Positions 1 through 14,294 of a stretch of DNA of 64,000 nt are shown in pieces. The first letter of the stretch is position 1. Each line of letters starts with the position of its first letter. Below the pieces are notes generated by a model, which did no database searches, was not told the DNA's origin, and saw only the letters and a list, made by a program, of their open reading frames with translations. This DNA comes from an uncultured Planctomycetaceae bacterium (lineage in GTDB: Bacteria; Planctomycetota; Planctomycetia; Pirellulales; Pirellulaceae): NCBI GenBank assembly GCA_937862885.1, contig CALMEE010000062.1:1-64000 (forward strand), written 5' to 3'. The position numbers and the translations under genes are program-made.

Positions 1-126
1 CGAAATCTGGAGTTTCTCATCACTGTCAACATGCACTTCCCCGGGCGCTTACTTTATATTCAAATGCGACTGACTCGATTTGCCATCGACCGACTGTCAC
101 TTATTGCTCTATTTGGACGGCCGTAA
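1..126 (+). CDS. Possible 3' tail of an upstream gene (partial)
   Basis: The first reading frame is open from the window edge to a TAA and would encode about 41 residues, ending in LIALFGRP. The peptide is rich in Arg, Leu and Phe and looks more protein-like than the competing frame over the same bases. It could be the C-terminus of the gene before the VWA-like gene. No domain can be recognised from so short a tail. The alternative is that the overlapping third frame, also open from the edge, is the real coding frame here. Both cannot be fully coding unless the genes overlap by more than 100 bases. Confidence 0.3.
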   Translation, partial: RNLEFLITVNMHFPGRLLYIQMRLTRFAIDRLSLIALFGRP

Positions 127-878
127 TTGTTGCAGTTATTTCAATCGTATTCTTGCTTGTATTGGTTATTGCGATTTTCTTCTTCGTAAAAAATTCGAGT
201 GCAACAAGAAGTTCCGACCAAGATGACTTCGACAAAACTGAGGGGCAATCCTCTCAGGTGGCGAGAAATGCAGGAATGAATGGAAACGATAATCTTCGCG
301 CGGAAGATTCTTGGGGCGGTAGTCGAGACTCAAGTCCTAACGACGCATTGAGCGAACAAGATATAATGAACCTTCCCGCCTCAACATTTTTTGGATTGGA
401 CGCAAAGGGAAAAAGAATCTGTTATTTGCTAGATCGTTCCACGGCAACAAGTCAAAAGGACTTTGTGAGAGCAAAAATTGAACTACTACGCTCTATTGAG
501 TCATTTGACGAAAGATATTTGTTTTATATAGGATTTTTCTCCGATCAAGGAACGATTTCGTTTCGGAATAATGAGCAACAGTACACATGGCTGACTCGCC
601 AAAATGTGCAAGAAGTTTTTGATTGGATTCGATCGATTGACCAAGCAGGAGGGCCCTCAGGAATTCCGCCAGTGGAAATAGCCTTTAAGCTTAAAGCTGA
701 TGTGTTGTACTTGTTGAGCAACATCGATCTTGATGCTAAATTTATTGCTACCCACTCCGCAATAAATTCAATTGCGATCATAAATGCCGCAAGTTTTGGA
801 AATGCCGAAAACAGAAAACGACTCCGCGATTTTGCTAGAAATAATCGAGGCTATTTTGTTTCCTTGGTTCAGGAGTAA
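3..878 (+). CDS. VWA-like membrane protein with degenerate MIDAS, 5' end uncertain
   Basis: The frame is open from the window edge. The first permissible start inside it is a TTG at 153, but that start would cut a hydrophobic segment (about 111-185) in half, so the true start is probably upstream of 153, possibly outside the window. After the membrane segment comes a polar linker, then a domain resembling von Willebrand factor A domains: a hydrophobic strand ending in LLDRST, a helix, a second strand (YLFYIGFFSD) and a third strand (LYLLSN). The metal-site motif DxSxS reads DRSTA and the later Asp-Gly motif is lost, so metal binding is unlikely. The next gene starts 6 bp downstream, so this is the first visible member of a five-gene operon. 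The VWA assignment rests on pattern only. Confidence 0.65.
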   Translation, partial: KSGVSHHCQHALPRALTLYSNATDSICHRPTVTYCSIWTAVIVAVISIVFLLVLVIAIFFFVKNSSATRSSDQDDFDKTEGQSSQVARNAGMNGNDNLRAEDSWGGSRDSSPNDALSEQDIMNLPASTFFGLDAKGKRICYLLDRSTATSQKDFVRAKIELLRSIESFDERYLFYIGFFSDQGTISFRNNEQQYTWLTRQNVQEVFDWIRSIDQAGGPSGIPPVEIAFKLKADVLYLLSNIDLDAKFIATHSAINSIAIINAASFGNAENRKRLRDFARNNRGYFVSLVQE

Positions 879-884
879 ATTAGA

Positions 885-1691
885 ATGGCAAGGCGTCGAA
901 ATCCAGCCACTGCTATTTCGTTGTTTGCATTTCAAGATATTATTACGGCAGTAACCGGAATTGTTGTCCTGATTACTCTTCTTTTGTCCATTGAATTGCT
1001 AGATCGAACGAAATCGACTACTGCCGAGGATGAAACTCAATCGTTAAACAGACAAACTCAAGAGACCATTGTTGAGCTTGAAACTGAGATTGCTTGCTTG
1101 ACTTCCGTATTTGAGCGAGAAAGTAAAATTGTCGTTGATTTACCGACGGATGATCTTGTCGCAATTCGAGAAATGGTTGGCGAAAGCGATGATCAAATCG
1201 AAAAGCTAAGTCAGAGTATTGCACGTAAGGAAGTTGAACTTAGTGAGAAGCTTGAGTCTTTTGGTCTTCTAGAACATGAGATTGCAAGTAACCGAGACGC
1301 CAAAATACAGGAATTGGAACAAAATCGTCAAGAAACTATAGCACTCGAAAAAACGGTTGAGGAGTTAAAGAAGGGAGGGCGGCGTTTTTTCAAAACCGGA
1401 GATAGCAAGAAGACGACTTGGCTCGTTGAAATCGCGGACGGCGGCTTTAGAATTGCACCGATTGGCAGGACGCAGAGGCCTAAATCCATAAAAACTCCAC
1501 GTGACTTTGTCGCCTGGACCAAGACACTTGACTCGAAGATAGAGAATTTATTTATCCTGGTGAAGCCCAATGGCGAAACCTTCTTTAAAGAGGTGCTGGA
1601 AGATCTTTTTAGTAACCAAATCGAATTTGGGTTCTCGTGCGTAGGCGTTAGTGATTTTATTTTAGATGATGAACGAGGAGCGGGAATTTAG
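885..1691 (+). CDS. Single-pass coiled-coil membrane protein, ExbD/MotB-like architecture (A)
   Basis: The 268-residue protein has a basic N-terminus, one membrane helix at about residues 12-38 that starts with FAFQDII, a long coiled coil (about 45-165) and a small C-terminal domain (about 175-262) containing LFILVKPNGE. A short cytoplasmic tail, an Asp at the start of the helix and a periplasmic alpha/beta domain is the plan of ExbD, TolR and MotB stator proteins; that relationship is inferred. AGGAG lies 9 bases before the ATG, overlapping the upstream stop region. The downstream gene starts inside this gene's stop codon, so translation is probably coupled. Its neighbour looks like a diverged partner with the same plan. 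Confidence 0.75.
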   Translation: MARRRNPATAISLFAFQDIITAVTGIVVLITLLLSIELLDRTKSTTAEDETQSLNRQTQETIVELETEIACLTSVFERESKIVVDLPTDDLVAIREMVGESDDQIEKLSQSIARKEVELSEKLESFGLLEHEIASNRDAKIQELEQNRQETIALEKTVEELKKGGRRFFKTGDSKKTTWLVEIADGGFRIAPIGRTQRPKSIKTPRDFVAWTKTLDSKIENLFILVKPNGETFFKEVLEDLFSNQIEFGFSCVGVSDFILDDERGAGI

Positions 1692-2584
1692 TGGGAAGAA
1701 GAAAAATTAGTTCCTTCGCTAGCCTGGATTTGTTTTTGGATACCATTTGTAACACGTTTGGTGGAATCCTGTTGGTGGCCCTGCTGGTTGTTGTCATGCT
1801 TTTGGAAACGTCGAGAACAAAGAATTTAATGCCACCGACGCTCATGACATTGCTTGAGATGGCTAAAATTGACAATTATCGTGAGGAATTAACTAGGGAA
1901 CTGGTAACGTTGAGGGAGGCCACCAAACAAATCGAGTCCAATCTTGAGCAGATACCTGATGAAGTAAAGGAACTCTTTGAAAAATTAAGCCGAAATCAAG
2001 CTGTTGTTACTGAATTGAAAATTCAAGAAAGCGACGTCCTCGGAATGCTGAATCAGACTCAGATCTCGATCAACAACATGCTTTTGGACGAGGAAGCGCG
2101 AAAACGAGAGTACGATGAAACCAGAATGTACCTCACTGAGCTTCGGTCTAGGGTTGACGCCAGTTTGAATGAAGCAGCAACGGACTTAACAATACGTTCG
2201 GTGACTTCAGGAAGCAAAGATCAACTGAGCTATATTTTGAAGGATGGTAAGTTATATGGTCCCATTAGGTATGTAAACGGAAAATTAAATACGCTCGACT
2301 TTCAATTTGTTGAACGTGATAACCAAACTTATATCGAACCGAAACTCAATGCCGGTGAAGTCATTCCAGATCAGTTATTTTCGTCAGCCTCAATCACGGC
2401 AAAATTTGCCGAAATTAAATCGTCGGTTTATGATATCAGAATTTTTGTTTACTCCAATTCGTTTGGGCGTTACGCCCAAGTGGAGGATGTGATCCGGAAA
2501 CTGGGCTTCAAAATTGATTTATATCTCATGAGTCCTGACGAAGCTGTGATCTTCAAATCGGACACTCGCAAACGAGTAGGATAG
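1691..2584 (+). CDS. Single-pass coiled-coil membrane protein, ExbD/MotB-like architecture (B)
   Basis: This 297-residue protein starts with GTG in a TAGTG overlap with the upstream stop; AGGAG sits 10 bases before the GTG. It has one membrane helix at about residues 11-39, beginning LDLFLDTICN, with an Asp at the membrane entry. A coiled coil follows (about 60-165), then a C-terminal domain with RIFVYSNSFG and a final beta strand. The layout repeats that of the preceding protein with little sequence identity, suggesting a hetero-oligomer of two ExbD/MotB-like subunits. No ExbB/MotA-like channel partner is visible; it may lie left of the window. Function is unknown. Confidence 0.75.
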   Translation: MGRRKISSFASLDLFLDTICNTFGGILLVALLVVVMLLETSRTKNLMPPTLMTLLEMAKIDNYREELTRELVTLREATKQIESNLEQIPDEVKELFEKLSRNQAVVTELKIQESDVLGMLNQTQISINNMLLDEEARKREYDETRMYLTELRSRVDASLNEAATDLTIRSVTSGSKDQLSYILKDGKLYGPIRYVNGKLNTLDFQFVERDNQTYIEPKLNAGEVIPDQLFSSASITAKFAEIKSSVYDIRIFVYSNSFGRYAQVEDVIRKLGFKIDLYLMSPDEAVIFKSDTRKRVG

Positions 2585-2587
2585 TCA

Positions 2588-3865
2588 ATGAAGATCGTGC
2601 TACAAGTTACCGATAGTAATTCAACGCAACTGATCGAACTTTCAAATCGCACATCGACGATAGGTAGACGTCCCAAGTGTGATATTAAGTTTAGCGATGA
2701 AACCGTTTCCGGGCGCCATGCGCGTTTAAAGGTCGATGGTGATCGACTTACCGTTGAAGATCTGGAATCGGCCAATGGACTTATCGTCGATGGTAAGCTT
2801 GTAGCGACAAGAAGAGAAATAGTCATCGGCCAAGGCAGTCGAATTCAATTGGGAAAACGCGGACCGATGATTATGGTTGTTCACGGACCAATGCTCGGCT
2901 CAGATCGTCGTGAATATTCCCTCAAGCCAAGAAATTGGTTGGCGATTATTGCTATCTCGGTATTTTGCGTCTGCATGTGCGGGGGCGGGATAACTGTCTC
3001 AAGTAGTTTGTTTTTCTTTCGAGACTCAATATTCACTGGGGCTAGTATCAATCGAGTTTCAAACAATGAGGCGCAGCTATCTCGCGCCGTTGGATTGGTA
3101 GTCGTTGGTTTTAACGGCCTAGGAACCGACGGACGAAATCGTGTTTTCGTGCTAGGAACTGGAACTTGCTTTGCTGTCACATCAGATGGCTATCTGTTTA
3201 CAAACCAACATGTCGTCGAAGATGCAGTTACCTTTCAGAAACTCGGATACGTGCAACTGAATTTCGATGGCGTAATATATCGATTGGATCGTGAAATTCT
3301 CGAAAAGCTCTACGGTGCTAAGATCGAAAACGAAAAAATTTGGGTGTTGATAAATCAACAGGAATTTGAAGCTCAAGTTGTCCATGTTAGCGACAAGTAC
3401 GATTTCAGTATTCTCAAAATCAATGCTGCAAAAATGCCCCATTTTCGATTGTCCAATGTTGACGAGGTTAAGCCAATCCAAGAGGTTTTCGCTATTGGTT
3501 ACCCGGGAATTGCTTCCGAAGCATTCACTAGGGAACAAGTTCAAAGCGAATACGTGAGGAGCCGTGTGCCACATCACACCGTGAAAGACGCGTTCAGTCG
3601 AGATGCATTAGTCCATTCGGTAACGCGAGGAATCGTAAGCCGTGTTCGCTCTGAAGAGAATCCCAAAAGGCATTGGATACAGCATGATGCAGTACTCAAT
3701 CAAGGTAATTCAGGAGGACCTTTGTGTACGCCGCAAGGTGTCGTTGTCGGCCTCAACACAGTAGGAAGTCATGAGTACAATACGTACTTTACATTAACTG
3801 TAAAGCAACTTGAAAATGAAATTGCTCCGTACATAAAGAATATTAAATGGGCCCGACCTAGATGA
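2588..3865 (+). CDS. Membrane-anchored FHA domain-trypsin-like (HtrA-type) serine protease
   Basis: Residues 1-95 form a forkhead-associated phosphothreonine-binding domain with GRR near 26-28, SGRH at 41-44 and NG at 63-64. A membrane helix follows at about 118-143. The rest is a chymotrypsin/HtrA-like protease with a complete triad: His208 (TNQH), Asp272 (KYDF) and Ser375 in QGNSGGP. There is no PDZ domain, which HtrA/DegP proteins normally carry. The FHA domain would be cytoplasmic and the protease on the far side of the membrane, so a phospho-signal inside could gate proteolysis outside. The gene starts 3 bp after the coiled-coil gene and overlaps the kinase gene by 4 bp, so the kinase is the obvious source of the FHA ligand. 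Confidence 0.88.
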   Translation: MKIVLQVTDSNSTQLIELSNRTSTIGRRPKCDIKFSDETVSGRHARLKVDGDRLTVEDLESANGLIVDGKLVATRREIVIGQGSRIQLGKRGPMIMVVHGPMLGSDRREYSLKPRNWLAIIAISVFCVCMCGGGITVSSSLFFFRDSIFTGASINRVSNNEAQLSRAVGLVVVGFNGLGTDGRNRVFVLGTGTCFAVTSDGYLFTNQHVVEDAVTFQKLGYVQLNFDGVIYRLDREILEKLYGAKIENEKIWVLINQQEFEAQVVHVSDKYDFSILKINAAKMPHFRLSNVDEVKPIQEVFAIGYPGIASEAFTREQVQSEYVRSRVPHHTVKDAFSRDALVHSVTRGIVSRVRSEENPKRHWIQHDAVLNQGNSGGPLCTPQGVVVGLNTVGSHEYNTYFTLTVKQLENEIAPYIKNIKWARPR

Positions 3866-4989
3866 AAAAACCTCCTCCGATTTCAACGAATGTGATCTCA
3901 AACGGTATGCGCGTTGGGAAAGGAAAATACAAGTTAATTAAACGATTAGCAGTCGGTGGCAATGGTGAAGTGTGGCTGGCTGATCATTTATCGATCGGAC
4001 AACCAGTTGTTGTTAAATTTCCGCGGGGAAAGGAGGGCATACAACTATCACAATTGGTAGCGGAAATTCAACACCTCTCTTTTTTCTCCAATCGCCACCC
4101 AAACATAGTCAACGTGTTGGATGCGGGATTGTTCGGAACAGGTGTTTTTGTGGTCGTTCAATACTTAGCCAACGGCAGCTTGCGCAAGTATCTTTGGGGA
4201 AAACCAATTGATGAACACTTTGGTGGCAGGTCGATTCACCGGCGGGGTGATTGGCTTCGCTCGATTGCATCTGCCTTGGATTTCTTGCATGCAAACGGTC
4301 TTTTTCATTGTGACGTAAAACCGGACAATATCTTGTTCGATTCTTCATGTGCGGCATATCTTGGTGACTTCGGTATCGCCGTTTCAACGTCCACACCAAG
4401 CACAGATTTGAGAGATCGTAAATTGCATGGATCACTGCCATATATGGCCCCCGAATTGTTTCAGTCGGGGATTCCGAACGCCCGAACGGATTTGTTCTCG
4501 CTCGCGGCGACAACATGGGAATTTTTGACCGGACAAAGGTGTGTTGCTATCGAGTCGCAACGCGACAACTCGATTGAAAATTCGGTTCGAGGTCTGCATT
4601 TTTCGGAATTGCGTCCCGATACCGATTCAAACCTTGATCCAGTTTTCCAGCAGGCTCTTTCTGCTATCCCATGTGAAAGATTTGAGAGTTGTTCTGCATT
4701 TGCTGAGGCAGTGATCCGCCATTGGCCGTTTGATGAGCAAGCATGGCGTCGCGCAAGCGAAAGGTCAGGCACGCCCAAGCACGGAGAGTCGGGAGTCAGT
4801 GAGTCAACAAACTCGAATGCAGAATATCAACTGGCAACGCCAACATTATCGTCGAGCGACGGGAATTCAACGGTAGACAACGTATTGGCGCAGAATTGCA
4901 ATCGGTCAGTAAAATACGAAAAGAAAAAGATAAGTCTGCGACGACTACTACCTTCTGAGGATTCAAATCAGGAAGGCCAAAAGGATTAG
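3862..4989 (+). CDS. Hanks-type Ser/Thr protein kinase, non-RD, last gene of the operon
   Basis: The kinase domain covers about residues 22-290. Visible catalytic elements are the glycine-rich loop (AVGGNGEV), Lys52 (VVVKFP), Glu68 of helix C, the catalytic loop HCDVKPDN with Asp151, DFG at 169-171 and APE at 196-198. The residue before the catalytic Asp is Cys rather than Arg, making this a non-RD kinase, a class usually not controlled by activation-loop phosphorylation. No membrane helix is seen. The C-terminal 90 residues are low in complexity and end in a basic then acidic tail. The ATG overlaps the protease stop (ATGA). The 3' end overlaps that of convergent flhB by 4 bp. Confidence 0.9.
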   Translation: MKKPPPISTNVISNGMRVGKGKYKLIKRLAVGGNGEVWLADHLSIGQPVVVKFPRGKEGIQLSQLVAEIQHLSFFSNRHPNIVNVLDAGLFGTGVFVVVQYLANGSLRKYLWGKPIDEHFGGRSIHRRGDWLRSIASALDFLHANGLFHCDVKPDNILFDSSCAAYLGDFGIAVSTSTPSTDLRDRKLHGSLPYMAPELFQSGIPNARTDLFSLAATTWEFLTGQRCVAIESQRDNSIENSVRGLHFSELRPDTDSNLDPVFQQALSAIPCERFESCSAFAEAVIRHWPFDEQAWRRASERSGTPKHGESGVSESTNSNAEYQLATPTLSSSDGNSTVDNVLAQNCNRSVKYEKKKISLRRLLPSEDSNQEGQKD

Positions 4990-6050
4990 CGCGATTCGAA
5001 ACGGCGGATGAAGTTTAGGATTTCTGCTACGGCAGGGAACAGTTCATAAGGGATTTCTTGTCCCAATTTTACGTTTGCATACAAATATCGAGCGATAGAT
5101 TTGCGCTCCACGATGGCCACGCCATGCTCTTTGGCGATGCGAATAATTTGTTGTGCCAAGTGATCGGCGCCTTTGGCCACTACAATCGGTGCGGTGTTTT
5201 CTTCAGCCACATATTTTAAGGCTACGGCGTAGTGCGTCGGGTTGGTCACGACAACCGTCGATGTGGGCACCGCCTTCATCATCCGCTTTTTGCTCAATTC
5301 GCTGGCAACTCGGCGAATCCTCGCTCGTACCTGCGGATCTCCTTCAGTTTGTTTGTGCTCATCACGAACTTCTTGCAAAGTCATTCGCAAGTCCCTGCGG
5401 TGTTTCCACCATTGGAAGCCATAGTCGATTACGCCGACGAACAGCATCAGTCCAGCTGACAATAACCCGATGGACAGAAAGAACTGTGCGCCAACGTCAA
5501 ATCCGTGAGACAACGTAGATTGGCCCGATGAAGCGACATCTCCCAAGCGCGCGATGGTCAAGTAATAAACGGCGGCGACGATACAAGCGGCTTTGGCGAT
5601 GGCGACCGCACCACGCACGATGGCCCGTGATGAAAAGATTCTTTTCATACCATTTACCGGGTTCATTTTGCCCCATTTCAACTCCATCGGTTTCAATGAA
5701 ATATTGAATCGCGTTTGCAGAAAAGAGGCAACTAGAACCACAATCGTTATGGGAACGATAATAGCCAAGCAGGCTATTCCCAATTGCGTTACATCGCGTC
5801 TCAACGCCAGCAATAGTGTTTCAGGGTGATGGATCATCGGTTCGACAAAGATGATCCGCTCGCGCATCACTGATTTGATCATGTCGAAAAACCATTTTCC
5901 GACCAACAAGAAAAACAGCATCGCCGTCAGTAACGTAAGCCCGCTCAACAGTTCCGAACTAAAGGCTATCTGGCCTTCTTCCAGCGCCCGTTCCAATCGG
6001 CGCGGTGTTGCTTCTTCGGTTCTTTGGTCGGACGTTCTTTCGTCACTCAT
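4986..6050 (-). CDS. flhB: Flagellar biosynthesis protein FlhB
   Basis: This is the export-gate protein of the flagellar type III secretion system that controls the substrate-specificity switch. The 354-residue length is normal. It has the cytoplasmic N-terminus ending TPRRLE, four hydrophobic segments (about 33-56, 88-112, 145-168, 188-212) and a cytoplasmic domain with the self-cleavage motif NPTH (Asn270-Pro271). It is the last gene of the flagellar operon, 76 bp after fliR. Its stop overlaps the stop of the kinase gene on the other strand, with no terminator hairpin visible between them. Confidence 0.97.
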   Translation of the reverse strand: MSDERTSDQRTEEATPRRLERALEEGQIAFSSELLSGLTLLTAMLFFLLVGKWFFDMIKSVMRERIIFVEPMIHHPETLLLALRRDVTQLGIACLAIIVPITIVVLVASFLQTRFNISLKPMELKWGKMNPVNGMKRIFSSRAIVRGAVAIAKAACIVAAVYYLTIARLGDVASSGQSTLSHGFDVGAQFFLSIGLLSAGLMLFVGVIDYGFQWWKHRRDLRMTLQEVRDEHKQTEGDPQVRARIRRVASELSKKRMMKAVPTSTVVVTNPTHYAVALKYVAEENTAPIVVAKGADHLAQQIIRIAKEHGVAIVERKSIARYLYANVKLGQEIPYELFPAVAEILNFIRRFESR

Positions 6051-6126
6051 GGTTTAACGCTAGATCCAAATCGAAGTCCAAAGCATGTTAGAGACATGGG
6101 CGACATTCTATGATCGCCGTATACGG

Positions 6127-6885
6127 TTAAACGAAAAATGCCATAAATTCTTCCAACTCAATCATCATGCGGGAAAAGTATCCCTCGATCGATTTCCACA
6201 ATACAGGGAGGAAGATCAACATTGCCAGTAAGCCCAGACCAACCCTTAGCGGCATGCCGACCGAAAAGAGGTTGAGTGTTGGAGCGGCCTTCGTAAGGAA
6301 AAATAGACTCACTACAATAGCGAAACTGATCACTCCGAGCGGAGCCATGATTAACAACCCGTACTTTGAAAGATTGTCGACCATGCCAACGAGTCCATCC
6401 GTTGGCAAGTTCAATAAATCGATCTTCCCAGCGAATTCATTCAATGAATAGTGCAACATGAGAATCATGAAATGGTGCAAATTGAGGCCAAAGAAAATCA
6501 AGATTGCGAACGTTTCGAATAACGAGGTAACAACGGTTGCGTTTTCCGAACCTGAGTTCGTGATCGGTTCCATTGAGACTCCAATCTCTTGACCGATGTA
6601 AGAACCAGCGATTCGGGCAGGGATCAAAATGAAGCCAACAAGCATGGACAGCAACGCGCCGATCAATACTTCTTTCCCTATTAGAATAATCGCCCAGATT
6701 ATTTCGACTCGAAGCGGAATTGCTGAGTCTGGGATTGATCCAAACCAGAATATGGAGAGCGCGACGGCAAGGCCAATCTTAATTTTTACGGGCAATTGCC
6801 GGCGACTAAACAGGGGAAAAAAGGCGATGAACGCCGATACTCGCGCCAACACAAGTACGAACGAGAAGATGATCTGTTCAGACAT
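6127..6885 (-). CDS. fliR: Flagellar biosynthetic protein FliR
   Basis: The 252-residue, very hydrophobic protein has about six membrane segments, matching FliR of the flagellar export gate. In the known gate structure FliR packs with FliP and FliQ. The segment IPARIAGSYIGQEIG and the following region with loss of charge are typical of the family. The gene sits between fliQ (71 bp upstream) and flhB, the usual fliQ-fliR-flhB order. The C-terminus (LEEFMAFFV) is hydrophobic and short, as in homologues. Confidence 0.95.
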   Translation of the reverse strand: MSEQIIFSFVLVLARVSAFIAFFPLFSRRQLPVKIKIGLAVALSIFWFGSIPDSAIPLRVEIIWAIILIGKEVLIGALLSMLVGFILIPARIAGSYIGQEIGVSMEPITNSGSENATVVTSLFETFAILIFFGLNLHHFMILMLHYSLNEFAGKIDLLNLPTDGLVGMVDNLSKYGLLIMAPLGVISFAIVVSLFFLTKAAPTLNLFSVGMPLRVGLGLLAMLIFLPVLWKSIEGYFSRMMIELEEFMAFFV

Positions 6886-6956
6886 GGTCTAATCTTTCTG
6901 CGCACGCCTGATTGTAGGATTACGTTGGGATCCTGCGAAAAAACAAATCGGCCCTA

Positions 6957-7226
6957 TCACATTCCGGTCTCCGCCACTTTTTCGAACATCCGCATTGTGA
7001 AGTTTTTGAGCGTCGAGAGGTACCAAGGAGTCAAGAAGATAACAATCGCAACTACCGCGACAATTCGCGGGGCGAAGGTAAGCGTTTGTTCCTGAATGCT
7101 TGTGACGGTTTGCATAATACTGATAGTCACGCCGACAAGCAAAGAGACAATCACGACCGGAGCCGAGAGTAACAAGGCAACCATCATCAAGTCGCGGCCA
7201 ATAATAATTGCATCTGCAGTTTCCAT
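6957..7226 (-). CDS. fliQ: Flagellar biosynthetic protein FliQ
   Basis: The 89-residue protein has two membrane helices (about 14-38 and 50-75), the normal size and topology of FliQ. The stretch between the helices contains SIQEQTL and the second helix starts FAPRIV, both characteristic of the family. It encodes a gate subunit that surrounds the FliP-FliR core. In most bacteria fliP lies immediately upstream of fliQ; here the upstream gene, 33 bp away, encodes a MotE-like protein instead. Confidence 0.96.
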   Translation of the reverse strand: METADAIIIGRDLMMVALLLSAPVVIVSLLVGVTISIMQTVTSIQEQTLTFAPRIVAVVAIVIFLTPWYLSTLKNFTMRMFEKVAETGM

Positions 7227-7259
7227 AACGCTCTCTAAACTGTTTAAGTTCGCATTTGT

Positions 7260-8036
7260 CTAGTACAACGGGCGCCGTGTATTTTCTCCAAGGTCTTCTC
7301 TGGTTTCTTCGGCTAGCGCGTTTAGCAACTGCTGCACGAATTCGGGGTCATTAAATTCTGCCAAGATTTTGCTCGCTTTTCGTTGCTGTAAACTTTTGAG
7401 CAATCTAACGGCAAATCTCAGGTCTCCGTTATTAGCGAATTCTTTGAGGTAGTTGGCGGCCTGTGCGTCATCCAGACCTTCGAACCATGGTTTTGCGGTT
7501 TTGACTCGTTGGCCAATTTCATCCAATTCTTCCGTGCCTGTTGCCTTTCGTTTTGCGAGTTGCTGTTCGAACTTGCTGATTTCGTCTGTTTTGGCCGCCA
7601 GTGTGAGATTCTCTTGTTTCAACTCTGCAACTGCGTTTTTTGTCAGCTGAAGTCTCGCTTCGATTTTCTCAAGCAGCGCCGTCAATTCAGCGCGTTCGAC
7701 TTTCAAGTCTTCGAACAGCAGGTGGATATTCTGTTCGGTTTTTTCGACTGCATTTTCCCGTGCGATCAAATCGCGTTCTTTTCTACGAATCGAATCGCTT
7801 AGCTCAAGCACAGCCTCGACGCTCAACGGTACTTCTGGACGCAGGGCAACCGGTAGCTGCTCGGCCTTTTCTGTGCCTTGGCCGATTGGTGGCACACCTG
7901 CTTCCAATTCGGGATCGATCTCATCAGCCGTCTGTTTGGCAAGTGAATTTTGTTGGTTTAGAAGGTACCAGGAGGCGGTCGCTGATATTGCGAATAAAAC
8001 GGCGCCAACGATTCCTGCTTTCAAAATCGTTTTCAT
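7260..8036 (-). CDS. MotE-like flagellar protein (TM, coiled coil, MgtE/FliG-like C-terminus)
   Basis: The 258-residue protein has an N-terminal membrane helix (about 7-27), an extended periplasmic coiled coil (about 75-175) and a C-terminal helical domain (about 185-250) whose pattern (FEGLDDAQAANYL, then LLKSLQQRKASKIL) resembles the MgtE N-terminal/FliG-like domain found in MotE chaperones. In alpha-proteobacteria MotE stabilises the stator partner MotC; a similar stator or assembly role is possible here but inferred. The start codon overlaps the fliJ stop by 4 bp, indicating translational coupling. Confidence 0.75.
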   Translation of the reverse strand: MKTILKAGIVGAVLFAISATASWYLLNQQNSLAKQTADEIDPELEAGVPPIGQGTEKAEQLPVALRPEVPLSVEAVLELSDSIRRKERDLIARENAVEKTEQNIHLLFEDLKVERAELTALLEKIEARLQLTKNAVAELKQENLTLAAKTDEISKFEQQLAKRKATGTEELDEIGQRVKTAKPWFEGLDDAQAANYLKEFANNGDLRFAVRLLKSLQQRKASKILAEFNDPEFVQQLLNALAEETREDLGENTRRPLY

Positions 8037-8476
8037 GTACTTTCTCCCAAAAACTTCGTAAGCAGATAGGTTTCGTCAGCTAGGCGCATCTCACGCCGTG
8101 AATTTTCGGCCCTGAATCGACTTACTTCACGATCTAACAAATTTTCCCAGGATGTGCAGCGCACTCGCTGTGCACGATAACGACGAATTATTTCCAGTTG
8201 TTTTTCCCGTGCCGTTACCAGCTCATTTTGCGTGTTTGCAAGTCGGCGATTGATGACTGACATTGAGCATACGCCTTGTTGAAAGGACTCTAGCAATTGT
8301 GAACCTTCCACAATTTGCTGATTGATGATTTGAATTTCATGGTTTAAATTTGCTTGCTCCGCGATCAATTCTTGTATTGCCCGCGATTGCAGCTTCAATT
8401 CATTTTTCAACAACTCAAGTTGGTTTAATTGAAAATTTAATATTTTGCGAAGTCGATTTATGCGCCGGTTGCCCAC
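8033..8476 (-). CDS. fliJ: Flagellar FliJ-like export chaperone
   Basis: The 147-residue protein is almost entirely coiled coil and rich in Gln, Glu, Arg and Leu, as expected for FliJ, which fits as a stalk in the hexameric FliI ATPase and docks to FlhA. The start is GTG. Sequence conservation in FliJ is poor, so the call rests on size, coiled-coil content and position right after fliI (50 bp gap) and before the overlapping motE-like gene. Confidence 0.8.
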   Translation of the reverse strand: MGNRRINRLRKILNFQLNQLELLKNELKLQSRAIQELIAEQANLNHEIQIINQQIVEGSQLLESFQQGVCSMSVINRRLANTQNELVTAREKQLEIIRRYRAQRVRCTSWENLLDREVSRFRAENSRREMRLADETYLLTKFLGEST

Positions 8477-8526
8477 TTCGATGTCGCCTCACATTGCCGG
8501 AAAATGTTGAAGTGTTTGCATCGTTT

Positions 8527-9840
8527 TCAATTCCACCGACCTGCCAATTCGCGCAGTTTTTCCTTGGTTAGCGCAAATGGCTGAGGCACACCCAGTTCCT
8601 GCTGCAAGAATTTACACACCGCAGGATATAGATCGACGGCTTTGTCCGTTCGTTCCGCAACTCCGCGCTGGTAGGCGCCGATTTGAAGTAAGTCGACAAC
8701 CTCGTCGTACTGAGTCAAAATCTGCCGAACCGCGACTGCATCCCTTTGATGCACTGCATCCGCGAGTTCTATAAATAGCCGACTATTGCTGGCAAGAATA
8801 TCGATGGACGGAAAATGTCCAGCGTTAGCGAGCTTGCGCGACAACACGATGTGGCCGTCCAAAATCGATCGGGCGCTGTCTGCGATTGGATCATTTAGAT
8901 CATCCCCCTCAACCAAAATCGTGAGAATTCCCGTGACGGATCCGCGATCGGCGTTCCCCATCCGTTCCAACAACACCGCCATCTTCTGGAAAACTGACGG
9001 AGTGTAACCTCGCGCTGTAGGCGGTTCCCCCAACATCAAGCCAAGATCGCGTTGCGCCATTGCGAATCGGGTTAAGCTATCTAGCATTAACAATACGTTT
9101 TTTCCTTGACGTCGGAACCAACCTGCGATTGCCATGCCCGTTTCCGCAGAACGAACTCGCGCAAGAGGGCTTTCATTTGCGGTGGCCACGATCACAACTG
9201 AGCGCGAAAGCCCCTGTGGTCCGAGAGCTTGCTGCACGAATGGCGTGACTTCTCTTCCTCGCTCGCCGACCAACACCACGACGTTCAAATCAGCTGACGC
9301 ATGCCGAGCAATTTGGCCCAGCAATGTACTCTTCCCCACGCCACTTCCGGCAAACAAACCAACGCGTTGCCCAAGCCCAAGCGTCAACAGACCATCAATG
9401 GCGGCTTGACCAGTGATAAATGGAACGGTGATGTCTTGGCGTCCCAGAGTTGGCGGCGGGTCTCCATTAAATGGTTCGCGCAGCGGAGTTGCAAGTGGAC
9501 CCAGATCGTCTATTGGCTCACCCAAAGCGTTGATAACTCGGCCCAACACGCCATCACCGACGGGCACGCGCATCGAAGTGCCTAATCCGATTACCTCGTC
9601 GTCACGCTGCAAAGTTTCATTCGTGGCAAAGGGCATGATCTGAGATAGATTGCCGTCAAAACCAATGACTTCTGCTAGACTTAAGCGTCCAGTGCGACTC
9701 TTGATTTGACACAATTCTCCGATAGCGCCGTTCAACGTTGCGGTGATGGCTCCATTGACACTTTGAATGCGTCCTGTTTGCTGAAATGGGCTGGCACTCT
9801 GAATCACTTGGCGGAATGTCTTTTCATCAAGTCCCAGCAT
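8527..9840 (-). CDS. fliI: Flagellum-specific ATP synthase FliI
   Basis: This is the ATPase that energises and orders flagellar protein export, homologous to the F1 beta subunit. The 437-residue length is typical. It shows Walker A GSGVGKST at 165-172, VGERGREV at about 191-198, Walker B (LLMLD, ending at Asp254) and the family stretch GEPPTARGYTPSVF. The start lies 14 bp inside the end of fliH, consistent with coupled synthesis of the FliH-FliI complex. Confidence 0.98.
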   Translation of the reverse strand: MLGLDEKTFRQVIQSASPFQQTGRIQSVNGAITATLNGAIGELCQIKSRTGRLSLAEVIGFDGNLSQIMPFATNETLQRDDEVIGLGTSMRVPVGDGVLGRVINALGEPIDDLGPLATPLREPFNGDPPPTLGRQDITVPFITGQAAIDGLLTLGLGQRVGLFAGSGVGKSTLLGQIARHASADLNVVVLVGERGREVTPFVQQALGPQGLSRSVVIVATANESPLARVRSAETGMAIAGWFRRQGKNVLLMLDSLTRFAMAQRDLGLMLGEPPTARGYTPSVFQKMAVLLERMGNADRGSVTGILTILVEGDDLNDPIADSARSILDGHIVLSRKLANAGHFPSIDILASNSRLFIELADAVHQRDAVAVRQILTQYDEVVDLLQIGAYQRGVAERTDKAVDLYPAVCKFLQQELGVPQPFALTKEKLRELAGRWN

Positions 9841-10444
9841 CTTGCAAATACTCCAGTAATTTCGCCTGAATCCGGCTCATCTGCTCTTCATGGTCTGCGA
9901 TGAGAGCGCAGCTCGCAGCTTCAATGCGGCAGTCACCGATGGCCAGACTATCATCCGCACGAACATCACCAATGAATGCCGATACATTGGCTTCGGCGAT
10001 TGTTCGCTTGATGCGATCGATAATTTTTCCGTTGACATACAATGTCGCTGTGCCAAAATCTTTCTGACCAGCAACGGCTTCTTCAAGCAATTCCATGATT
10101 CTTTTGTCGCTGACACCTACTTCGTGACGAACAACTGCCCTGGCTATTTCCATTCCTAGCTTGACCGCAAGTTCACGGCATTCATGCAACGTGTTGGCCT
10201 GCACTTGCCACATTGCGCGAAATTGTCTGTCCAGTTGTGTCAGCAATTCCCTCAATTTGATTTCAAAATCAGCGACGTAAGTAGCATTATTTTCGGTTTG
10301 TGTCTCCGGCATTAACGAACCGCTAGCACAATTGCCGCCGTGTGGAGCTTTGTTCAGGTGCGACGGCCCAGTCGCCAAACTGCTATCTTGAGTTAAAGCG
10401 AGATTTCTTAATGAATGTTTAAATGTGAGAGTGACTTGCCGCAT
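9827..10444 (-). CDS. fliH: Flagellar assembly protein FliH
   Basis: FliH is the stator-like regulator of FliI. The 205-residue protein has a variable N-terminus (about 1-50), a helical middle (about 58-110) and a C-terminal domain with GDCRIEAASCALIAD, a variant of the conserved FliH/V-ATPase E-subunit-like segment. A downstream Met (residue 45) is an alternative start, because the first 44 residues are low in conservation signals and no good ribosome site precedes either Met. A 127 bp gap separates it from fliG, the largest gap in the upper half of the operon. Confidence 0.88.
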   Translation of the reverse strand: MRQVTLTFKHSLRNLALTQDSSLATGPSHLNKAPHGGNCASGSLMPETQTENNATYVADFEIKLRELLTQLDRQFRAMWQVQANTLHECRELAVKLGMEIARAVVRHEVGVSDKRIMELLEEAVAGQKDFGTATLYVNGKIIDRIKRTIAEANVSAFIGDVRADDSLAIGDCRIEAASCALIADHEEQMSRIQAKLLEYLQDAGT

Positions 10445-10571
10445 TGCTTAAATGATGCCAGCGTTGTTAGGCATCCCATAGTTTGTTGTTTTAATTCACG
10501 TCGACGACCATGGTTCAAGTTCTCGTCAAGTTGGTTTTGGCCGTTCTGCGTTGTAATAAGGTTTGTGAAGA

Positions 10572-11555
10572 CTAGAGTTTGATTTCTCCACTTTCATCGA
10601 GATTGGACAAAGTTTTCACAATATTTGCGCGCGCTTCTTCGACTTCTTCATCAGAGACTCCCACTTTGAATTCCATTTCTTCGGTGATCGAATCTCTTGC
10701 ACGTTTCGACAGGTTGTTGAGCAATTTGTCAGCAAGCTCTTGTTCGCAGCGCTGTAATCCGACAATTAGCACATCCGAATCGACTTGACTCAAGAGTTTC
10801 TGAACATCACGGTCTTCGAGACGTAAGATATCTTCAAAGATGTAGAGTTTGGCCTTAACTTTTTCCGCTAGGTCGACGTTGGTCTTTAGTAAATGAGCCA
10901 ACAATTCTGCACGAACCTTTTTGTTGACTGAACGCAAGAGATCAGCGATTGCCTTCGATTGGTCGACTTCCGGAATGCGGAACTCAATTGAACAAGCCTT
11001 TTGAACGGCGGAGTTGAGAACTCTTGATACAAGCGGTTGCGGCACTGAGCACTCTTGTGCAATGTATGACAAGGTTTGCGAACGTGTCGATGCCGGGAAA
11101 AGTTCTAACACGTTCGCAGCCTGTTTGGTGTCTATGTTTCTCAGAACCAGGGCGATCGTTTTCGGGTGATCTGATTCAATCGCCGCAAAAATTTGGAATG
11201 GATCCAGACGATTTAAGTCGTCGATCGGATTGTCACCAGGAATCAACTTTGGAAAATAGATGATTTCGGGTTTCTTCTCAGCTGGTTTGTACGCACCCTT
11301 TTGGTTGTTTTTCGTTTTTTCGGCGAGGAGTTCTGGGCCCATTGCTTCCAGCGCGAAGTGAAAGAACTTGAAAAAGTCGCCGACAATGTAGTCTACCTCC
11401 TCTTCGGAGGGCGGATCGTCTTTGAATTCCTCATAGATTCTCTTAACATCGATGGCCAACGTAGGATTCATCTTTTGAAAGGCGGCAGACGCCACCTCAT
11501 CGCCGAGAATGCTGAGCAGTAGAGCTAGTCTTTCATGTGACGAAAACGTAATCAT
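10572..11555 (-). CDS. fliG: Flagellar motor switch protein FliG
   Basis: FliG forms the rotor part that touches the stator and generates torque. The 327-residue length fits. The middle domain carries SDHPKTIALVL, a variant of the conserved EHPQ motif, and the C-terminal domain has the torque-helix region (FEDILRLEDRDVQKLL) with charged residues. It begins 9 bp after the fliF stop, the standard fliF-fliG order. No fliM or fliN gene accompanies it in this window. Confidence 0.96.
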   Translation of the reverse strand: MITFSSHERLALLLSILGDEVASAAFQKMNPTLAIDVKRIYEEFKDDPPSEEEVDYIVGDFFKFFHFALEAMGPELLAEKTKNNQKGAYKPAEKKPEIIYFPKLIPGDNPIDDLNRLDPFQIFAAIESDHPKTIALVLRNIDTKQAANVLELFPASTRSQTLSYIAQECSVPQPLVSRVLNSAVQKACSIEFRIPEVDQSKAIADLLRSVNKKVRAELLAHLLKTNVDLAEKVKAKLYIFEDILRLEDRDVQKLLSQVDSDVLIVGLQRCEQELADKLLNNLSKRARDSITEEMEFKVGVSDEEVEEARANIVKTLSNLDESGEIKL

Positions 11556-11564
11556 ATACAGTCG

Positions 11565-13079
11565 CTAAGCCGCCTTCGATTCCGGTTGATCGGTTTTCGT
11601 TGTTGGCGCTTCCTGCGCCCACGAGGCTAGTATTTTGGAGAAGACTTCCGGGTTGTTCTTTACCAATTCGCTTAGCTGGTTGACCTGGGAGCCGCGTTCC
11701 ACACCCGCCTGCGAATTGTTTGGCGAGGAAGAGGGACGCATCGATTTGAGTGTCCGGCTGCCGAGGAAAAAGGCGACGATCGCAGCAATTCCCAAAGAGA
11801 TATTCCTCAAGGCCAATTGTATTTGGTCCCAGGTAATCCAAGGTGTACCTTGAGTATCGATGGGAACAAGATCGACGAATTCGAAAAACTCCAAGTTGAA
11901 CTGGTCAACCCCATCGCGGAAGCCGACGGCTTGCTTGACCATGGCTTCAATGCTCGCCTTAACCGATGCCGGAATTTCTTGAGCATCATTGCGCACCTTG
12001 GCGGAGTTAACAAGAACGGAGACTGTCAGCAAGTTCATTACGGGCGTGCGTACAATATCTTCACGCAGCGTGGATGAGACTTCGTACCTTGAATCAATGA
12101 CCTCGGTCTTATTGGAGAGAGGTTGGCCCACGTCTTGACTTCGAGAGTTGTTTACGTTCGAGCTTATGCCTGCGACACCAACTGGGGGTTTGAAATTTCC
12201 GCCCGTGGTTGAACTAGTATCGATAGTTTCGCTAATGGCTACGCGTTTCTCAGGATCAAACTCTTTGGTTGTTGTGCGCGCCTCGGGGAAAGAAAAGTCG
12301 GCGGTGATCTCGACACGCGCGTTTCCGACCCCCAAGAAGTTTAGCAACAGCATTTGTGCCTTGTGCGTCAGTTCCCGCTCGCGGTTGATCCGGTATTCTT
12401 CTTGTTTAGTTAATCGGCCAAGGCTCTCGTCGTTGCTGTACAGATTGCCGGCGGTATCTGATATTGCCACCTGTTCGGGGCGCATGCCTGGAACTGCGTT
12501 GGCCACGGTTTGTGCGACAGCCAATGCGGTCGCTTCATTGAATCGTTGGCCCGAAGCAAGTGTGAGAATCACCGATGCCGTAGGAGGGCTAGAATGGCGT
12601 AAGAAGGGTTGCCGTTCCGGAATACTCAAGTGAACAGTCGCTGATTCGATGCTTGCGAATTGCTGGATGGAACGGGAAAGTTGTTTTTCCAGATTTCTGC
12701 GCAACACGTTTTGCTGGTTGACCGGGTCCATCCAGGGTGACGTTGATTCCAGATCAACCTCATGCGGGCTAATGCCGCGACTGCCGGCCAGAATAGAAGC
12801 TTGATCAAAATAGCGTTTGTCGACCAGGATTAACGAGCCAGCTCCTTTGATTTGGTAGCTGATGTTGGCTTGGTCCAGCGCTGCCATCAGCATTGCGGAC
12901 TTGTTGGGCTCCAAATTGCTGGCTAACGTCACATAGTTTGGTTGAGCTGACCAAATACCTACACCAACAATCGCGCCGAGACAAATTAGCAGCAGAAGGA
13001 TGATGCCAAATCGTGCCGCGCTAGTGGATTCCTTCCAGACAGCTAACGTTTGATCCAAAAACGCTCGTATGGTGCGCAT
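11565..13079 (-). CDS. fliF: Flagellar MS-ring protein FliF
   Basis: FliF builds the membrane-supramembrane ring on which the flagellum assembles. The 504-residue protein has an N-terminal membrane helix (about 24-44), ring-building motifs in the periplasmic region including LDQANISYQ and RNLEKQLSRSIQQF, and a C-terminal helix at about 428-450 followed by a FliG-binding tail. GAGGGT precedes the ATG by about 9 bases. It is 25 bp downstream of fliE. Confidence 0.97.
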   Translation of the reverse strand: MRTIRAFLDQTLAVWKESTSAARFGIILLLLICLGAIVGVGIWSAQPNYVTLASNLEPNKSAMLMAALDQANISYQIKGAGSLILVDKRYFDQASILAGSRGISPHEVDLESTSPWMDPVNQQNVLRRNLEKQLSRSIQQFASIESATVHLSIPERQPFLRHSSPPTASVILTLASGQRFNEATALAVAQTVANAVPGMRPEQVAISDTAGNLYSNDESLGRLTKQEEYRINRERELTHKAQMLLLNFLGVGNARVEITADFSFPEARTTTKEFDPEKRVAISETIDTSSTTGGNFKPPVGVAGISSNVNNSRSQDVGQPLSNKTEVIDSRYEVSSTLREDIVRTPVMNLLTVSVLVNSAKVRNDAQEIPASVKASIEAMVKQAVGFRDGVDQFNLEFFEFVDLVPIDTQGTPWITWDQIQLALRNISLGIAAIVAFFLGSRTLKSMRPSSSPNNSQAGVERGSQVNQLSELVKNNPEVFSKILASWAQEAPTTKTDQPESKAA

Positions 13080-13104
13080 GATTCATACCCTCAATTGAAT
13101 ACCT

Positions 13105-13434
13105 TTAGAATTGCATTCGCATCAGTTCATTGTACGAATCGATAATTTTGTTCCTCACTTCCATGAAGAATTGAAAAGAAAGATCAGCTCTGGCCATTGC
13201 CATCACGACTTGTTGTATGTTGTCTGTTTTGCCAGTTACAAAACTCTCGATCGTCGCATCCGCACTTGCCTGTTCGGCATTCGTCTGCTTGACAAAATGT
13301 TGCAACAGTTCTCCAAAACCTTGCGGATCCTGGGGCTTGGCGGTTTGATCCAGCTGTTTCGTTGACATGGCGTCAAACGCGTTTTGGATCTTTGCGACTT
13401 GGGCGACGGAGGAGATGCCGCTGAGTGGCGTCAC
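13105..13434 (-). CDS. fliE: Flagellar hook-basal body protein FliE
   Basis: FliE links the MS ring to the rod. The 109-residue protein has the typical C-terminal helix pair ending in VRNKIIDSYNELMRMQF, with the central FGELLQHFV segment. The GTG start overlaps the flgC stop by 4 bp (GTGA), consistent with coupling in the conserved flgB-flgC-fliE order. Confidence 0.95.
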   Translation of the reverse strand: MTPLSGISSVAQVAKIQNAFDAMSTKQLDQTAKPQDPQGFGELLQHFVKQTNAEQASADATIESFVTGKTDNIQQVVMAMARADLSFQFFMEVRNKIIDSYNELMRMQF

Positions 13435-13874
13435 TGAGCACCTCCACGCAGCAGTCGCAATGTGAGTTCGACCATCTGCTTGAAACTCGTTAACGCCTTT
13501 AAGTTTGCTTCATAGGTGCGTGATGCCGTAATTAAGTCCACCATTTCATTGGGCAACTTGACATTTGGCATTGCCAATAAGCCAGTTTCCGGATCGGCAT
13601 CCGGGTGCCCGGGATTGTAAATCATGGGAAACTCAGTGGGGTCGTTGATTTGCGCGACGACGTCGACACCGCCGAGTCCCTTGATAAAGTCGTTTCCATG
13701 GGCGCCATCGAGGGAAGCAGCAAACACGAGCTGTTGACGGCGATATGGACCACCATCATGCGACCGCGTCGAGTGTGCATTGGCAATGTTGTTGGCGACA
13801 ACTTCCATGCGTTGTCGCTCAGCCGACATTCCTTTGGCACTAATCGAAGCTCCTGAAAATGCAGCCGTGTGCAT
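13431..13874 (-). CDS. flgC: Flagellar basal-body rod protein FlgC
   Basis: FlgC is a proximal rod subunit. The N-terminal rod signature (SISAKGMSAERQRMEVVANN) and the C-terminal helix (VDLITASRTYEANLKAL) are diagnostic. I chose the ATG preceded by AAAGGA at good spacing, giving 147 residues; an in-frame TTG six codons upstream would add a non-conserved MCERIR extension. It follows flgB with a gap of about 60 bp. Confidence 0.96.
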   Translation of the reverse strand: MHTAAFSGASISAKGMSAERQRMEVVANNIANAHSTRSHDGGPYRRQQLVFAASLDGAHGNDFIKGLGGVDVVAQINDPTEFPMIYNPGHPDADPETGLLAMPNVKLPNEMVDLITASRTYEANLKALTSFKQMVELTLRLLRGGAQ

Positions 13875-13937
13875 ACGAATCCTTTCGCACAAATCTTAAC
13901 CCTGCGGCGTCGACGAATTTTCTCGTTCTTTCCAATA

Positions 13938-14294
13938 CTATCCCTTGATGGCTTGCTTCATCGTCGCCAATTTCGAACCAATCAATTGTGTCAACGTTTG
14001 GTACATTAGATCGTTGCGTTTGATATTTGCCATTTCGCGATCCAGGTCGACGTTGTTGCCGTCATGCCGTGTTTTCAAACCTTGAACCTCCAACGCCTCA
14101 AGTTTTAACTCTTTATCTTTGGAGAGGTTGCCCGGCTGTTCCACATGCTGTAGGAACTGTGCGAAGGGAATCTCTTGTGTCTGGTAATTCGGCGTATTTA
14201 CGTTCGCCAAGTTTTGGCTAATCACACGATGATTTTGGCTTGCGAATTCAATCGCCCGACTTAACAACGGAATTTGGTACGAATTTAGGTTCAT
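13938..14294 (-). CDS. flgB: Flagellar basal-body rod protein FlgB
   Basis: FlgB is a proximal rod subunit and the first gene of the flagellar operon. The 118-residue protein has the rod signature VISQNLANVNTPNYQ near the N-terminus and an amphipathic C-terminal helix (YQTLTQLIGSKLATMKQAI). No ribosome-binding site is visible before the ATG; instead a sigma-28-like -10 element ends 8 bases upstream, so the transcript could be nearly leaderless. Confidence 0.96.
   Translation of the reverse strand: MNLNSYQIPLLSRAIEFASQNHRVISQNLANVNTPNYQTQEIPFAQFLQHVEQPGNLSKDKELKLEALEVQGLKTRHDGNNVDLDREMANIKRNDLMYQTLTQLIGSKLATMKQAIKG

What the first reader, a model, noticed from the sequence alone, without database searches (positions are those of the whole stretch)
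3..4989. Five-gene operon pairing two ExbD/MotB-like proteins with a VWA-like protein, an FHA-protease and a kinase
All junctions are 6 bp or less or overlap (gap 6, overlap 1, gap 3, overlap 4), so the genes are very probably co-expressed. Seen: two different single-pass coiled-coil proteins with an Asp at the membrane helix start, a degenerate VWA-like protein, an FHA-TM-trypsin-like protease with an intact triad, and a non-RD kinase. Known: ExbD/MotB-like proteins work with ExbB/MotA-like channels, and FHA domains bind pThr. Inferred: the kinase marks a substrate that the FHA domain reads, controlling the protease on the other side of the membrane, with the coiled-coil pair as an ion-driven or scaffolding complex. 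This combination is not a system I can name. It loosely recalls Zorya ZorAB and TerY-P-type kinase modules, but neither matches.
Basis: partly seen in the sequence, partly recalled or inferred. Interest (0 to 1): 0.8.

Follow-up and report, generated by a model that had tools for sequence, protein, structure and literature searches.

The report
Ion-channel module in a GTPase system
The five genes are the second half of a ten-gene bacterial GTPase operon of the "GAP1-N2" kind, split by a jumping gene; across planctomycetes, Lentisphaerota and Desulfobacterota such operons carry an ExbB-like ion channel and two ExbD-like partner proteins that the published description does not mention, so they may be powered by the membrane ion gradient, much like the Zorya phage-defence machine.

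Summary
Window base 1 is a contig end, and bases 1-52 are the terminal repeat of a multi-copy insertion sequence. A 10-bp target-site duplication, an unbroken reading frame and a complete relative (L091) place the missing half on contig C55 of the same genome. The whole operon has ten genes: zinc-ribbon DO-GTPase, GAP1-N2, a ~987-aa membrane scaffold, GYF-TM, ExbB/MotA channel, VWA (g1), coiled-coil ExbD-like A (g2), ExbD-like B (g3), FHA-TM-trypsin (g4) and kinase (g5). The core (DO-GTPase, GAP1, scaffold, ExbB, ExbD-A, ExbD-B) recurs in Planctomycetota, Lentisphaerota and Desulfobacterota. All 14 phylum-sample genomes with a strong g3 hit also encode GAP1-N2, 12 of them 5-10 kb away on the same contig. 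One membrane Asp is invariant in 59/59 g2-type and one in 55/55 g3-type proteins. It is therefore a GAP1-N2 predicted conflict system (Kaur et al. 2020) with an ion-channel module that paper's text does not mention. Protease, kinase and VWA are variable add-ons. The mechanism (ion-driven envelope sensor coupled to a GTPase switch, as in Zorya) and the defence role are inferred, untested. Novelty: new variant of a known kind.

The parts
1..52 (.). End of a multi-copy insertion sequence (terminal repeat GTAAGCGCCC... read on the - strand); not part of gene 1
   Evidence: Identical at five other contig ends, six copies in the genome; the partner end sits at the end of contig C55, the two 54-nt ends sharing their first 11 bases
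53..62 (.). 10-bp target-site duplication TTTATATTCA; the same 10 bp directly abut the other IS end on contig C55
53..878 (+). g1: 3' part of a TM + VWA gene (degenerate metal site DRSTA), interrupted after codon 33; start and first 33 codons are on C55
   Evidence: frame continues across the site: ATG AAG CCT ... TTA TAT TCA | AAT GCG; relatives match VWA_3; L091 homologue E 2e-18
885..1691 (+). g2: ExbD-like A: TM, long coiled coil, C-terminal ExbD/TolR-like domain; invariant Asp18 (nt 936-938)
1691..2584 (+). g3: ExbD-like B, homologous to g2; invariant Asp17 (nt 1739-1741)
2588..3865 (+). g4: FHA - TM - trypsin-like protease, catalytic triad intact (variable output gene)
3862..4989 (+). 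g5: Ser/Thr protein kinase, non-RD (HCD) (variable output gene)
   Evidence: 35% identical orthologue at the same place in L091

Best explanation
The five genes are the distal half of a GAP1-N2/DO-GTPase (GTPase-centric) conflict-type operon of a sub-type that has an ion-channel module in its conserved core. SHOWN by sequence: a ten-gene order DO-GTPase, GAP1-N2, ~987-aa one-TM scaffold, GYF-TM, ExbB/MotA channel, VWA (g1), ExbD-like A (g2), ExbD-like B (g3), FHA-TM-trypsin (g4), kinase (g5); in this genome an insertion sequence splits it inside g1. INFERRED: ExbB subunits form the channel and g2+g3 sit in it as a (hetero)dimer, each supplying its invariant Asp, as in 5:2 ExbBD/MotAB/ZorAB motors. 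Their coiled coils, ExbD-like domains, the scaffold's outer solenoid and the VWA domain reach into the envelope and sense disturbance, for example phage entry. Ion-driven movement is passed to the cytoplasmic GTPase/GAP1 switch, which releases the variable output, here an FHA-controlled periplasmic protease and a kinase.
For: Own genome: GAP1-N2 (56.9 bits) + GAP1-M (37), GYF_2 (58), MotA_ExbB (39.4) and a zinc-ribbon GTPase with GAPASGKS/DNAGE/NKFD on C55, joined to the window by a 10-bp TSD and continuous reading frame. L091 carries the same ten genes in order on one contig. 80 ExbB-anchored loci: ExbD-A in 65, ExbD-B in 65, scaffold in 56, DO-GTPase in 39 and GAP1 in 39, many loci cut by contig ends; in three loci (L142, L167, L169) the ExbB-ExbD block comes before the GTPase block, so linkage survives rearrangement. 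Phylum sample: all 14 genomes with a strong full-length g3 hit also have GAP1-N2, against 36 of 392 overall; the 12 whose hits share a contig lie 5.3-9.7 kb apart. Invariant Asp in both ExbD-like families. GxxGTVxG channel motif in 79/79 ExbB proteins. AF2 model of g2 (pLDDT 89) with C-terminal domain like TolR (Z 7.2) and ExbD (Z 6.1-6.3). GAP1-N2 systems are predicted conflict systems with variable outputs (PMC7159879). Zorya precedent: ZorB Asp24, peptidoglycan binding and ion flow needed for defence (PMC11890865).
Against: No sequence-level match of g2/g3 to ExbD, and the fold match is shared with other alpha/beta folds. No oligomer was modelled. No FNIII-repeat protein, which the paper lists for GAP1-N2 systems, was found. 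Pfam DO-GTPase score (16.6) is below its cut-off of 27. No experiment shows defence for this class. Defence-island context was not tested for the window-type loci. g1 is broken in this genome, so the system may be inactive here.
Confidence: 0.6

Rival explanations
1. Same anatomy, but an envelope-stress or envelope-maintenance machine rather than anti-phage defence: the ExbB/ExbD-like motor drives or senses cell-wall or membrane state, and the GTPase, protease and kinase regulate a housekeeping response.
For: ExbBD/TolQR relatives mostly do envelope work (established knowledge). One PSP paper predicts a role of DO-GTPases in membrane-related stress (PMC11237479). Both FHA-protease and VWA look membrane-tethered.
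Against: Patchy distribution (13 of 118 relatives), variable output genes and interruption by an IS without evident loss of the rest fit an accessory conflict system better than a housekeeping one.
Confidence: 0.25
2. g2/g3 are purely structural coiled-coil scaffolds that anchor the GTPase complex to the membrane; the ExbB homologue has lost ion conduction.
For: No sequence-level match to ExbD; very long coiled coils.
Against: A membrane-embedded Asp is invariant in 59/59 and 55/55 sequences that share only ~20% identity, and the ExbB channel motif is invariant in 79/79.
Confidence: 0.1
3. The first reader's self-contained five-gene kinase-FHA-protease relay, with coiled-coil proteins as its scaffold.
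For: The protease-kinase pair downstream of ExbD-B recurs in L091.
Against: Most homologous loci lack both genes; the constant part is GTPase-GAP1-scaffold-ExbB-ExbD-ExbD. g1 is truncated and its operon continues upstream on C55.
Confidence: 0.05

Closest known systems
GAP1-N2-type GTPase-centric conflict systems (Kaur, Burroughs, Iyer, Aravind 2020, eLife e52696, PMC7159879)
   Same: GAP1-N2 + GAP1-M protein, zinc-ribbon GTPase directly upstream, GYF-TM and GYF-trypsin proteins in planctomycetes, variable outputs (kinase, vWA and HSP70 also appear there)
   Different: Core also holds an ExbB channel, two coiled-coil ExbD-like proteins and a ~970-aa membrane scaffold; the paper's main text has no mention of MotA or ExbB (figures and supplements could not be read). 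No FNIII protein found here.
Zorya (ZorA/ZorB 5:2 motor; PMC11890865)
   Same: ExbB/MotA-type channel plus single-TM partner with an essential membrane Asp, long extension, associated with predicted defence outputs
   Different: No ZorC, ZorD or ZorE; long extension is on the B-type (ExbD-like) side, not on ZorA; two different B subunits; GTPase/GAP1 switch
ExbB-ExbD / TolQ-TolR
   Same: PF01618 channel, Asp at the start of the partner's TM, TolR/ExbD-like predicted periplasmic fold
   Different: ExbD-like proteins are about twice as long with a coiled coil, occur as a conserved pair, fall outside PF02472, and no TonB/TolA was seen
TerY-P-type kinase/vWA modules
   Same: vWA protein and protein kinase in one operon
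   Different: No TerD-type or PP2C gene seen; kinase and vWA are optional here

Membership tests
GAP1-N2 GTPase-centric system | GAP1-N2 and GAP1-M domains in one protein | tested here: met
   C55: 56.9 and 37.0 bits against cut-offs of 24;
GAP1-N2 GTPase-centric system | TRAFAC GTPase with Walker-B Glu and N-terminal zinc ribbons, encoded next to GAP1 | tested here: met
   GAPASGKS, DNAGE, NKFD and two CxxC directly upstream of GAP1; Walker A and DxxGE in 38/38 homologues, CxxC pair in 32/38
GAP1-N2 GTPase-centric system | Pfam DO-GTPase1/2 score over cut-off | tested here: inconclusive
   16.6 bits against 27; relatives up to 19.1 bits, E 9e-4
GAP1-N2 GTPase-centric system | FNIII-repeat protein | tested here: inconclusive
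   No fn3 match in the operon; the paper calls these repeats rapidly evolving, so Pfam may miss them
GAP1-N2 GTPase-centric system | Planctomycete theme: GYF fused to TM-rich region or trypsin | tested here: met
   GYF_2 58.3 bits + TMs on C55; GYF-trypsin in L025, L097, L120
MotA/TolQ/ExbB channel | PF01618 over cut-off | tested here: met
   39.4 bits against 22.9
ExbD/TolR | Single N-terminal TM with essential Asp near its start | tested here: met
   59/59 and 55/55 Asp
ExbD/TolR | Sequence-profile similarity to ExbD (PF02472) | tested here: not met
   No Pfam hit; hhalign against own-genome ExbD proteins E 0.1 and 0.3. Hence called ExbD-like, not a member
ExbD/TolR | ExbD/TolR periplasmic fold | tested here: inconclusive
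   Predicted b-b-b-a-b-a-b; TolR 5by4 Z 7.2 over 84 of 105 residues, ExbD Z 6.1-6.3, but unrelated alpha/beta folds score alike
ExbD/TolR | Gene linked to an ExbB-type gene | tested here: met
   65 of 80 ExbB loci hold each ExbD-like gene; order also seen
Zorya | ZorA and ZorB | tested here: not met
   Only superfamily-level ZorA hits to ExbB (E 1.5e-4); no ZorB hit for g2/g3
Zorya | ZorC/ZorD or ZorE effector | tested here: not met
   No PADLOC hit to these in the operon proteins scanned
TerY-P module | TerY-type vWA + kinase + PP2C | tested here: not met
   No PP2C gene in the ten-gene operon

The most novel reading that the evidence does not exclude
An ion-driven rotary motor built from ExbB and two different coiled-coil ExbD-like subunits is wired to a GTPase/GAP1 switch as an envelope-damage (phage-entry) sensor. 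It would be a Zorya-like strategy with a switch and outputs unrelated to Zorya's, spread over at least three phyla.
Probability: 0.35. Interest if true: 0.82.

Novelty: new variant of a known kind. Interest (0 to 1): 0.63.

Why it matters
If right, ion-powered motor complexes have been wired to immune-type switches more than once, and a sizeable set of "hypothetical" coiled-coil, TM and GYF proteins in planctomycetes, Lentisphaerota and Desulfobacterota gets one testable role. It also gives the predicted GAP1/DO-GTPase systems, for which no experimental test was found in the library searched, a concrete handle: two single aspartates whose mutation should abolish function.

Tried and rejected
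Direct Pfam/NCBIfam/PADLOC hits for g1-g3: only weak coiled-coil or TM noise. PDB sequence-profile searches of g2/g3: coiled-coil hits only; ExbB family: TolQ at E ~0.65. Fold search of the ~986-aa scaffold (pLDDT 86.5): TPR/helical-repeat look-alikes, nothing specific. Zorya and TerY-P membership: tested, not met. Phage carriage: no ExbB relative in 50,697 phage records. Link to the neighbouring flagellar genes rejected: flhB is in 51 of 60 relatives while the system is in 13 of 118, and in G035 the two lie 126 kb apart. Second copy in own genome: none for g2. Literature: no paper found in the open library that links GAP1/DO-GTPase to ExbB/ExbD; figures, supplements and subscription papers were not readable.

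Full report
OBSERVATION. The five ORFs, junctions and motifs are as described. The window, however, starts at a contig end (G000:C62:1). Its first 52 bases recur exactly at five other contig ends and end in ...GGGCGCTTAC, an insertion-sequence terminal repeat (the IS66-like look is from memory, a lead only). So g1 is not a complete gene and the operon's start is not in the window.

THE MISSING HALF. A family search of the same genome found its only GAP1-N2 gene on contig C55, minus strand, running toward that contig's end; the ~970-aa scaffold lies there too. C55 ends ...CCTCTTTATATTCA|GTAAGCGCCC; the window reads ...GGGCGCTTAC|TTTATATTCAAATG. The 10 bp TTTATATTCA are thus duplicated on both sides of an inserted element, and the VWA reading frame runs in frame from an ATG on C55 through the site into g1. 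On C55 (minus strand) the order is DO-GTPase 7488-8762, GAP1-N2 4791-7295, scaffold 1828-4791, GYF-TM 1041-1826, ExbB 154-~1044. The complete operon therefore has ten genes. An independent genome, L091 (JAJDED010000037.1), whose ExbB is the nearest to ours in the tree (98/92 support), holds all ten in the same order on one contig. Its vWA has an intact metal site (DCSGSMS), and its kinase is 35% identical to g5 but has the usual HRD. That confirms the join without relying on the assembly.

CONSERVATION. g3 was found in 13 of 118 relatives. Their neighbourhoods showed a constant block and variable ends. A scan of 84,980 genomes with the ExbB profile gave 80 best loci in Planctomycetota, Lentisphaerota and Desulfobacterota: ExbD-A in 65, ExbD-B in 65, scaffold in 56, DO-GTPase in 39, GAP1 in 39, many loci being cut by contig ends. 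In L142, L167 and L169 the ExbB-ExbD block comes first and the GTPase block second, so linkage survives rearrangement. In an even sample of 392 genomes of the phylum, 14 (own included) have a strong full-length g3 hit, and all 14 also encode GAP1-N2, against 36 of 392 overall. In the 12 cases where both are on one contig they are 5.3-9.7 kb apart; the other two are our IS-split contigs and a 3.7-kb contig. The variable positions hold GYF proteins (33 of 125 scanned), vWA, trypsin, kinase, HSP70 (L022), PD40 (L029) and PrsW (L110). The FHA-trypsin and kinase of the window are part of this variable set.

ExbD-LIKE PROTEINS. g2 and g3 are homologous to each other (hhalign probability 99.6, E 3e-24, partly coiled coil). 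D18 is the only invariant column in 59 g2-type sequences. D17 is invariant in 55 g3-type sequences. The ExbB channel motif GxxGTVxG is in 79/79. AlphaFold2 of g2 gave pLDDT 89, with a coiled coil and a C-terminal b-b-b-a-b-a-b domain. Among solved structures that domain matches TolR (Z 7.2, 84 of 105 residues) and ExbD (Z 6.1-6.3), but unrelated alpha/beta folds score similarly, and sequence profiles do not reach ExbD. I therefore call them ExbD-like by position, Asp and fold tendency, not members of PF02472.

MECHANISM. Shown: composition, order, linkage, invariant residues. Inferred: an ExbB pentamer with a g2/g3 pair as an ion-driven unit; the periplasmic coiled coils, ExbD-like domains, scaffold and vWA as envelope sensors; the DO-GTPase/GAP1 pair as switch, as Kaur et al. 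propose for this class; FHA-protease and kinase as this operon's output. In Zorya the ZorB membrane Asp, peptidoglycan binding and ion flow are needed for defence (PMC11890865), which is the precedent. A defence role was not tested; the patchy distribution and variable outputs favour it over housekeeping.

NOVELTY. The class is published. Its planctomycete members with GYF-TM or GYF-trypsin are mentioned in the paper's text, but MotA and ExbB are not, and no other open paper found links these families. The figures and supplementary tables of that paper could not be read, so a co-occurrence shown there without text cannot be excluded. The verdict is a new variant of a known kind.

Noticed in passing
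L079 (G000:C61:52001-72000), locus 9770-14235, - strand: A second, paralogous ExbB + two ExbD-like triad in the same genome (560, 562 and 354 aa); no GAP1 on this contig, since the genome's only GAP1-N2 hit is on C55. Weak A2 hits in many other planctomycetes look like the same broader family.
   Followed up: partly
L192 (Anabaena cylindrica pANACY.03) and L193 (Microcystis NIES-2481 p1): The nearest plasmid-borne ExbB relatives are ~467-aa proteins followed by two small hypothetical genes, sitting next to type III-B CRISPR and viperin, or methylase/helicase/SLATT genes: another ExbB module in defence islands.
   Followed up: partly
G463:C20, G296:C1, G495:C1 near the operon: Two GAP1-N2 genes about 4 kb apart upstream of the same ExbB/ExbD block.
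   Followed up: no
window 4986-9840: Flagellar export genes (FlhB-, FliR-, FliQ-, FliI-like) on the opposite strand directly abut the operon's end; judged to be a chance neighbour.
   Followed up: yes
L035 (G000:C55) 9338-11704: A 789-aa secreted repeat protein (YTVYVPExRTR-type repeats) upstream of the DO-GTPase gene; it may mark the left border of the operon.
   Followed up: no
contig ends of C22, C62, C63, C78, C81, C139: One insertion sequence, six copies of one end counted, breaks this assembly at many points; 10-bp target-site duplication at the one site checked.
   Followed up: partly
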